The notes under the pieces were generated by a model. The model was not told the origin of the DNA. It did not search any database and was given only the letters and a program-made list of their open reading frames with translations. The translations under genes and the position numbers were made by a program. From contig JAAXWG010000002.1 in the NCBI GenBank assembly GCA_013350285.1, positions 186,001-250,000 on the forward strand: DNA of 64,000 nucleotides, written 5' to 3'. This document shows positions 2,474-11,627 of the stretch, in pieces. The stretch is from Candidatus Altimarinota bacterium (GTDB lineage Bacteria; Patescibacteriota; Gracilibacteria; BD1-5; UBA6164). Position 1 is the first letter of the stretch. Each line of letters begins with the position of its first letter.

Positions 2474-2505
2474 GGTGTTATAATTTTATGTTTTTATGTA
2501 AGTTT

Positions 2506-3906
2506 ATGAATAAACAAATATTCACAATTGGATATGAAATACCTGGGTATTCTGAAAATTATGTGGATTTCAATTCTAAGAAATCACTAATGGATGCTGA
2601 TGTTTTGTTAATTTCGCCAGAATCATTGCATCCAAGTTATAATGGTTTTGTTAGTTTTTCTTCAGGAGGTGGTGGTTGTCATGATGTTGCAAATTCAAAG
2701 AAATATGAGGAAAATATATCTCATCTAAAAAAAGAAATTGAGGACTTTTTACAATCTGGAAAGAATATTTATATATTTTTATCAAAGAAAGAAAGTTATA
2801 TTCTTGCATCTAGTGTTACTTCACAGAGAAAAGGTGAACATTCATATAGCACCTATACAAAAAATAATTACGAATTTTTACCAATAAATATTGGAACACT
2901 AGTATCAGCTTCTGGAAAACATATAGAATTTTCTGGAAATTCTATTTTTAGTGATTTTTATAATAAATTTAAGAAAAATTTAGAATATCAATTATATGTT
3001 GAAAATCCAAGTAATGCTCAAATAATCTTTACTGGTAGAGATAAGGCAAAAATACTAGGTGCAGTCTATAAGGTAGGAAATGGCAATGTAGTTACTTTGC
3101 CTTATTTAAAATATGATAATGATGAATTTACTGAATATAAAGAAAATGGGAAAGAAGATTGTTGGACAGATGAAGCGATGAATTTTGGAAATAATTTTGT
3201 AGATTGCTTTTTGTCTATAGATCAACAATTATTACAAGAATCCGAGAAAACACCACCTCCACAATGGAGTAATAAAGAAGTTTATTCTTCAAAGAAGGCA
3301 ATTAAAATTGAAAAAGAAATAGAAAAAAACGAGATAGAAATAGAAAAAATAAAATCAAAAAATAAAAAATTAAATGGAGAATTAGAAAATGAAAATATTT
3401 TAAAAGATTTACTATTTGAGCAAGGAAAACCATTAGAAAATGCAGTTATTAAGGCATTACATATTTTAGATTATGAAGCAGAAAATTATAACGATGGTGA
3501 GCTTGAATTAGACCAAGTAATTTTAAGTCCAGAAAAACATAGATTTATAGGCGAATGTGAATGAAAAGATAATAAAGTTATAGATATAACAAAATTTAGA
3601 CAATTATTAGAATCATTAAATGCAGATTTTGCAAGAGATGATGTAGAAGAAAAGGCTTTAGGTATTTTATTTGGAAATCCAGAAAGATTAAAAAATCCAA
3701 CAGAAAGAACATTAGATTTTACTCAAAAATGTAAAATTGGAGCAGATAGAGAAAAAATTGCATTAGTAAAAACATTTGATTTATTTGTAGTTGTTAATTA
3801 TTTGAATGAAAATAAAAATGAAAATTTTAAAAAGGCTTGTAGACAGGCAATTTTAGATGGACTTGGTAAGATAGTAGAATTTCCAAAAATTCCTATAATT
3901 AAATAA
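2506..3906 (+). CDS. Putative PD-(D/E)XK-like nuclease, two-domain
   Basis: 466 aa from ATG 2506; an in-frame ATG at 2488 would add 6 residues. The N-terminal ~230 residues (IGYEIPGYSENYVDF, then DADVLLISPE) are not assigned with confidence but vaguely resemble glutamine-amidotransferase/ThuA-like folds. A charged coiled coil covers about 265-310. The C-terminal part has LDQVIL followed by GECEGKD near 349-355, which fits the D...ExK signature of restriction-like nucleases. The glycine inside that motif is the gene's only UGA; the other ~30 glycines use GGN. Neighbours use UGA far more, which may mean recent acquisition. Function is inferred from the motif only. Confidence 0.55.
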
Positions 3907-3977: not shown

Positions 3978-4537
3978 ATGAAAACAATCATTGAAAAAGC
4001 AAAGGCAAAATTTTTGGAAATGGTAGATAGTTTTTGATCAGATTACCTCATGTTCCAGAAGCTGAAAAATGGGCGAAATTTATGTTAAGAAAATATCCTC
4101 AAGCAAATGAAGAAATTGTTTTATTGTCTGTATGGCTTCATGATATTGGACATTATCCACTTCCAACCGAAATAGATCATGCAATAAGAGGTGAAGAGCG
4201 AGCGAGAGAATTTCTGGAACAAGAAAAATATGACTCAAAAAAAATGGAAGAAGTATTGCATTGTATTCGTGCACACAGATGTCGTGATGTTATGCCTAAA
4301 ACATTGGAAGCAAAAATCATAGCCTTTGTCGATTCTGCCAGTCATATGACAGATCCGATGTATTTTTATATGTCTAAACAAGATAAAAAAAATAATGAGA
4401 ATTTCAAAGCATATGCTAAAATGGAAAGAGATATACGAGATTTATCAGCCTTTCCTGAAGTTCAAAATGAACTTATTGGACTTTATGATGCATGGAAAAA
4501 TCTTATCAAAGAATATGAAAAAATTGATCTAAGATAA
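3978..4537 (+). CDS. HD-domain phosphohydrolase with apparent frameshift
   Basis: The frame from ATG 3978 (MKTIIEKAKAKFLEMVDSF) runs out of the conserved sequence at a five-T run at 4031-4035. The conserved part continues one frame over from about 4034 to 4537: HVPEAEKWAKFML, then WLHDIGHYPLP, IRAHR and FVDSASHM, which supply the H, HD, H and D metal ligands of the HD superfamily. Adding one T would fuse the two parts into one ~186-residue protein. Alternatives are a TTG start at 4034 (167 aa), a real homopolymer mutation, slippage, or an assembly error. The substrate is unknown; the family usually cleaves nucleotides or phosphate esters. Confidence 0.75.
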
Positions 4538-10709: not shown

Positions 10710-11627
10710 ATGGAATTCAAAATAGGAAAAGATAAATTTCTCAATTGGTTAGAGCTTATCAAAAATAAATCTCCAAAAACAGTAGAACAATATGATAGGC
10801 ATTTAAAATATTTTCAAGAATATCTCAAAACTATAAACAAAGAAAATATCATCATAGAAAATATTGATTTGGACATAGCAGAAGGATTTAGAACTTATAT
10901 CTATAAAAAATCTCAAAAATCACTCTCTCTCAAAACCATCAATGCCTATATGATTACTCTGAGAAGCTTCTTGAAATATTGCGAAAAAACTGGAATACAA
11001 TCACTCTCCCCTACCGCAATAGATTTGATAAAAGCAGAACAAAGACAGGTAGAGTTTCTCAATGAAGATGAACTCAAAAAACTTTTTTCTCAAGTAAATA
11101 TTACTACTATTATAGGAAAAAGAGACCTTGCAATTATGAAATGTATTTATTCAACTGGTCTTCGTATTAGTGAACTCTGCCAGCTCAATAAAAATGATAT
11201 CAATCTTGAAACAAAAGAATTTGTCGTGAGGGGGAAAGGAAGAAAACTCAGAATTGTCTATCTTACAGATGAAACAGCAAAAATAATAAAAGAATATCAA
11301 GAAGCAAGAAATGATATATATGCTCCTCTTTTTATTCGCCATAATTTCAAAAAAGAAAATATAAGTGAACTTGATGATGAAAATCTGAGATTGACACGAT
11401 TTTTTATAACAAGTATGATAAAAGAATATGCTCTCAAAGCTGGAATTCTCAAAGATATTTCTGCTCATACCTTGAGACATTCTTTTGCGACAACACTTCT
11501 TTGTAACTGAGCGGACTTGAGAAGTATTCAAGAAATGCTTGGACATGCGAGTATTACAACAACTCAAGTCTATACTCATGTGAGTAATCCTCATCTCAAA
11601 GAAATACATAAAAAATTTATGAACTAA
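10710..11627 (+). CDS. Tyrosine recombinase, Xer family
   Basis: 305 aa. The N-terminal SAM-like core-binding domain spans about residues 1-95, then the catalytic domain with TGLRISEL (Arg near 151), HTLRHSF (His-x-x-Arg near 254-257), GHASITTTQ and YTHVS (Tyr near 288). The length and the absence of linked phage genes favour a XerC/XerD-type enzyme for chromosome dimer resolution, but an integrase role cannot be excluded, because repeated gene ends lie 5-9 kb downstream. UGA codes the Gly in LLCNGADLRS just after the HxxR motif. Confidence 0.88.

What the first reader, a model, noticed from the sequence alone, without database searches (positions are those of the whole stretch)
3553..3570. 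Only UGA of the nuclease candidate lies inside its active-site motif
GAA TGT GAA TGA AAA GAT encodes E-C-E-G-K-D. The other ~30 glycines of this gene are GGN. Read with the standard code the protein would stop within the ExK motif, so activity would need the code-25 tRNA. It could be a barrier making the enzyme inert if transferred to standard-code cells, or chance in a recently acquired gene.
Basis: partly seen in the sequence, partly recalled or inferred. Interest (0 to 1): 0.6.

Follow-up and report, generated by a model that had tools for sequence, protein, structure and literature searches.

The report
Acquired nuclease gene with one UGA-glycine
A DNA-cutting-enzyme-like gene that a bacterium with an altered genetic code seems to have picked up from a normal-code bacterium has gained one altered codon (UGA read as glycine), which sits in its active site most likely by chance and not as a safety lock.

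Summary
Gene 2488-3906 has 28 glycine codons: 27 GGN and one TGA (3562-3564), inside D342...E356-C-E358-G359-K360-D. The genome uses code 25: it has a tRNA with anticodon UCA and RF1, and no separate RF2. A predicted structure (mean pLDDT 91.7) gives the C-terminal domain a PD-(D/E)XK fold (FokI cleavage domain Z 12.5), so the domain guess holds. G359 is invariant in 42 aligned homologues; every homologue read (Bacteroidota, Campylobacterota, Pseudomonadota, standard-code Patescibacteria, others) writes it GGN. No other code-25 genome found in the class has the gene.

What is unusual is the gene's lack of UGA: 4% of its glycines, against 48% window-wide (P about 3e-7). This fits recent acquisition from an AT-rich standard-code donor. 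One GGA-to-TGA change has since drifted in. Hitting this glycine has chance 1/28, and any >=90% conserved glycine 10/28. UGA in catalytic glycines is routine here (15 of 27 in P-loop-type motifs), and 56 of 57 window ORFs carry in-frame UGA, usually much earlier. Nothing supports a special "barrier". The UGA is better read as a mark of residence: the gene has lived and stayed intact in a code-25 cell. Ordinary.

The parts
2488..3906 (+). Nuclease-like ORF (472 aa in code 25; probable true start ATG at 2506, 466 aa)
   Evidence: homologues begin at the residue matching M7
3562..3564 (+). The single in-frame TGA, read as Gly359; invariant Gly, GGN in every homologue read
3553..3570 (+). E356-C-E358-G359-K360-D361, end of the third core strand of the nuclease domain
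3511..3513 (+). Asp342 codon (GAC), invariant in 42 of 42, first acidic residue of the D...ExE/K site
3391..3882 (+). C-terminal PD-(D/E)XK-like domain, residues 302-465
   Evidence: VIA-align Z 12.5 to the FokI cleavage domain
2506..3243 (+). N-terminal domain, residues 7-252, class I glutamine-amidotransferase-like fold
   Evidence: Z about 9-10 to GATase1-like and ThuA-like proteins
3292..3417 (+). Long linker helix, residues 269-310

Best explanation
The gene encodes a restriction-endonuclease-like protein: an N-terminal GATase-like domain, a long helix and a C-terminal PD-(D/E)XK nuclease domain. It belongs to an uncharacterised family that spreads between phyla and can sit beside restriction-modification genes. 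A code-25 Gracilibacteria-type cell acquired it recently from an AT-rich standard-code donor (inferred). Since then one GGA codon has mutated to UGA, which tRNA-Gly(UCA) reads as glycine, so the protein is unchanged. The mutation fell on the invariant active-site glycine by chance. It shows that the gene has been resident and kept intact in a code-25 cell. Shown: sequence, code, conservation, UGA depletion, predicted fold. Inferred: nuclease activity, defence role, the transfer and its direction, neutrality.
For: Code 25: tRNA with anticodon UCA at C5:45287; the only release-factor match is RF1, above the prfA cut-off and below the prfB cut-off. UGA is 563 of 1167 Gly codons in the window; the gene has 1 of 28, P = 2.7e-7. 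Homologues are absent from the other 47 genomes of the family and from the other code-25 genomes of the class but present in 43 genome-contig loci of about 11 phyla. The nearest tree neighbours are Bacteroidota, 91/91. The gene's codons lean more towards AT-rich Campylobacterota and Flavobacteriaceae than any of 54 other window genes, with GGT over-used, p = 0.019. Gly359 is invariant in 42/42 and GGN in all homologues. Random-placement odds are 1/28. UGA is 15 of 27 glycines in P-loop-type motifs. Fold.
Against: Overall synonymous codon usage apart from Gly and Leu is not among the most deviant in the window. Low UGA also occurs in translation genes here (S1 protein 5/38, EF-Ts 1/12, thrS 9/42), so expression level could lower UGA too. 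No donor closer than 62% identity was found, so the age of the transfer is not fixed. One GGA-to-TGA event cannot by itself separate drift from selection.
Confidence: 0.85

Rival explanations
1. Selected barrier: the UGA is kept in the active site so that the nuclease is inert if the gene moves to a standard-code cell.
For: Termination at UGA would remove K360 and the rest of the domain, about 114 residues. The family moves between phyla.
Against: Only one instance; no second code-25 homologue in the class. UGA is the commonest single glycine codon and sits freely in other catalytic motifs. Nearly all window genes would be blocked earlier. A benefit to the bearer from disabling a gene elsewhere is hard to see.
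Confidence: 0.03
2. UGA depletion reflects selection for GGN in a well-expressed native gene, not recent acquisition; the single UGA is then a tolerated exception.
For: EF-Ts, ribosomal S1-type protein and thrS in the same window are also UGA-poor.
Against: Those genes favour GGA (S1 22 of 33 GGN, EF-Ts 9 of 11, thrS 28 of 33); this gene uses GGT for 10 of 27. The gene is absent from all searched relatives of the family. Nuclease/defence genes are not expected to be highly expressed (general knowledge).
Confidence: 0.08
3. The TGA is an assembly or sequencing error, or a minority variant, for GGA.
For: It is one base from GGA, the commonest GGN codon in the gene; reads are not available here.
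Against: The rest of the ORF is intact, and GGA-to-TGA is the change expected in this code. Most of the window's genes carry UGA at glycines.
Confidence: 0.04

Closest known systems
PD-(D/E)XK nuclease superfamily (FokI cleavage domain, NucS/EndoMS, HindIII, Nt.BspD6I, AF1548)
   Same: Predicted helix/three-strand/helix/strand core with invariant D342 and E356 on adjacent strands; Z 12.5 to the FokI cleavage domain and to AF1548.
   Different: ExE instead of ExK at the third catalytic position, followed by Gly-Lys; one divergent member (L007) has E-V-K. No Pfam, NCBIfam or PADLOC family claims P0001.
Unnamed family of 'hypothetical proteins' (e.g. WP_049126869 on Enterobacter hormaechei plasmids)
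   Same: Full-length homologues at 31-62% identity with the same architecture and GE[ACSTV]EG[KR] motif.
   Different: This copy has a UGA codon at the motif glycine; all others read have GGN.
Genetic code 25 of Absconditabacteria and Gracilibacteria (UGA = Gly; PMC4032931, PMC6851277, PMC10746230)
   Same: UCA-anticodon tRNA, no separate RF2, UGA about half of glycine codons.
   Different: Nothing; the single UGA here is ordinary use of this code.

Membership tests
PD-(D/E)XK nuclease superfamily | Core alpha-beta-beta-beta-alpha-beta fold | tested here: met
   AlphaFold2 model pLDDT >90 over 312-469; strands 330-335, 340-346, 352-359, helix 367-381, strand 391-397; Z 12.5 to the FokI cleavage domain
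PD-(D/E)XK nuclease superfamily | Acidic residue at strand 2 and D/E at strand 3, conserved | tested here: met
   D342 and E356 invariant in 42/42
PD-(D/E)XK nuclease superfamily | Lysine (or accepted substitute) two residues after the strand-3 acid | tested here: inconclusive
   E358 in 41/42, K in one (L007); K360 nearby in 41/42, R in one. ExE occurs in BamHI (from memory, not tested)
PD-(D/E)XK nuclease superfamily | Metal-dependent DNA cleavage | not testable with these tools
   needs bench assay
Genetic code 25 | tRNA with UCA anticodon | tested here: met
   G000:C5:45287-45362; ARAGORN prints it as SeC because the bacterial code was assumed; charging with Gly not testable
Genetic code 25 | No release factor 2 | tested here: met
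   The only prfB-profile match is RF1: prfA 463.9 bits (cut-off 423), prfB 280 bits (cut-off 370); genome about 98% complete
Genetic code 25 | UGA frequent at glycine positions | tested here: met
   48% of Gly codons in window ORFs; P-loop-type motif glycines 15/27 UGA
Class I glutamine amidotransferase-like (N-terminal domain) | Fold | tested here: met
   Z 9-10 over 160-180 residues to several GATase1-like chains; middling, so only the fold class is claimed
Class I glutamine amidotransferase-like (N-terminal domain) | Cys-His-Glu triad | not tested
   No Cys among the invariant or nearly invariant N-terminal columns of A3; the triad was not mapped on the model
Restriction or anti-phage defence gene | Recurrent linkage to restriction-modification genes | tested here: inconclusive
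   N6-methylase, HsdM/S, RhuM, Vsr plus C5-methylase, ResIII neighbours at several loci, but solo at others and here; no statistical test made

The most novel reading that the evidence does not exclude
Code-25 cells keep UGA at catalytic glycines of self-harmful enzymes as genetic containment, and this gene is an example in which a single UGA falls exactly at the active site.
Probability: 0.02. Interest if true: 0.7.

Novelty: new member of a known kind. Interest (0 to 1): 0.15.

Why it matters
As a barrier it does not stand. As a method it is of modest use: in code-25 genomes the UGA share of glycine codons works as a rough clock for genes imported from standard-code donors, and a first UGA at an invariant glycine suggests that the import is real (not a chimeric contig) and still maintained.

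Tried and rejected
A single-sequence scan of genome contigs and viral contigs found nothing; an alignment scan found 43 + 1. That scan used GGN-containing patterns, so by itself it cannot show absence of UGA homologues; the read-through searches of whole genomes can. No phage record matched. L003 is a chance hit in DNA ligase. Sequence profiles of Pfam, NCBIfam, PADLOC and PDB gave nothing useful; only the fold comparison worked. A codon log-likelihood score and a scaled chi-square did not flag the gene; a donor-table comparison did. Foldseek's top rows (glycosidases) match the N-terminal domain only. The first-reader reading of E-G-K as the ExK triad was replaced by E-C-E followed by G-K.

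Full report
Observation. Window 3553-3570 reads GAA TGT GAA TGA AAA GAT, in frame in the ORF 2488-3906. The TGA (3562-3564) is codon 359 and the only TGA of the gene; the other 27 glycines are GGN (13 GGA, 10 GGT, 2 GGC, 2 GGG). Homologues begin at the residue that matches M7, so the gene probably starts at 2506.

Code. The genome has a tRNA gene with anticodon UCA (G000:C5:45287). Its only release-factor match to the prfB profile is an RF1 that passes the prfA cut-off and fails the prfB one. In 57 window ORFs UGA supplies 563 of 1167 glycine codons (48%), and 48% in a wider sample of 114 ORFs. This is code 25 as described for BD1-5/Gracilibacteria (PMC4032931, PMC6851277). The window's genome lies in a class that also holds Peregrinibacteria, whose homologue locus (L038) reads as standard code.

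What the protein is. No Pfam, NCBIfam, PADLOC or PDB sequence profile gives a convincing match. An alignment of 42 homologues gave a model with mean pLDDT 91.7. The pTM of 0.57 suggests that the two domains are not fixed relative to each other. Residues 302-465 match the FokI cleavage domain and AF1548 (Z 12.5), NucS/EndoMS, Nt.BspD6I and HindIII. D342 lies on strand 340-346 and E356-C-E358 on strand 352-359, as in PD-(D/E)XK enzymes. The usual lysine is a glutamate in 41 of 42 (E-V-K in L007), with K360 next to it; activity is therefore likely but not shown. Residues 7-252 resemble class I glutamine-amidotransferase-like proteins (Z 9-10). Homologues can lie beside N6-methylase/HsdM/HsdS, RhuM, Vsr plus C5-methylase or ResIII genes, so a restriction or defence role is the best guess. 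Here the gene stands alone between thrS and an HD-domain gene.

Distribution. The gene is absent from the other 47 genomes of the family and from all 353 class genomes except this one and G626, plus one divergent copy in G538. Both of those loci read as standard code. A profile-guided scan found 43 loci in Bacteroidota, Campylobacterota, Pseudomonadota, Patescibacteria, an archaeon and others, plus one viral contig; Enterobacter plasmids carry it too. In the tree the window protein groups with Cytophagaceae and Aquimarina sequences (91/91) inside a fully supported clade of Bacteroidota and Patescibacteria. Every homologue read has GGN at the motif glycine. The scan patterns demanded GGN, so the unbiased evidence on other code-25 genomes is the read-through whole-genome search.

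Is the UGA more than chance? What is not chance is its rarity: 1 of 28 against 48%, P = 2.7e-7. Together with the phyletic pattern and a codon lean towards AT-rich Campylobacterota and Flavobacteriaceae stronger than in any of 54 other window genes, this points to recent import from a standard-code donor. Some translation genes are also UGA-poor, but they use mostly GGA, while this gene over-uses GGT. Given one UGA among 28 glycines, the exact site has odds 1/28 and a glycine conserved at 90% or more 10/28; the site was picked after the fact.

The barrier idea. If UGA were placed in active sites on purpose it should stand out there. Instead 15 of 27 glycines in P-loop-type motifs of this genome are UGA, much as elsewhere. 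In 56 of 57 window ORFs a standard-code cell would stop somewhere, at a median 11.5% of the length; in the nuclease it would stop at 76%. Any containment is therefore a general by-product of code 25, weaker here than in almost any neighbour. Published work likewise treats dense in-frame TGA as a general feature of code-25 genomes and their prophages, and describes phages compatible with both codes (PMC10746230).

Verdict. The feature is real and correctly read; the enzyme-fold guess is supported; the barrier is not. The likeliest history is import, then a single neutral GGA-to-TGA change at an invariant glycine. That change is only readable in a code-25 cell, so it also argues against the gene being an assembly contaminant. 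The family itself is uncharacterised and may merit a bench assay, but the UGA is ordinary.

Noticed in passing
window 3978-4537: The HD-domain gene just downstream seems frameshifted near 4030: an ATG start at 3978 is in another frame than the HD ORF 4034-4537. The ORF has no UGA among 3 Gly codons and has only weak relatives (34-35%) in 2 of 14 related genomes, so it may belong to the same imported block.
   Followed up: partly
window 10710-11627: Tyrosine recombinase (Phage_integrase) gene with 1 UGA of 10 glycines, at 88% of its length; another UGA-poor gene.
   Followed up: no
L004:9310-9400: The Enterobacter hormaechei plasmid copy ends at an in-frame TGA about 22 codons before the family's usual end, at an alanine position, with the homologous reading frame continuing beyond it.
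   Followed up: partly
L053:5010-6092: The copy in a Methanophagales archaeon contig is interrupted by a stop right after the EGKDNKDI motif: a natural truncation close to where a standard-code reading of the window gene would stop.
   Followed up: no
L048:1796-7816: In a Peregrinibacteria contig the homologue sits between an N6-methylase/HsdR_N protein plus RhuM and a specificity-subunit-like protein, a compact restriction-type locus.
   Followed up: partly
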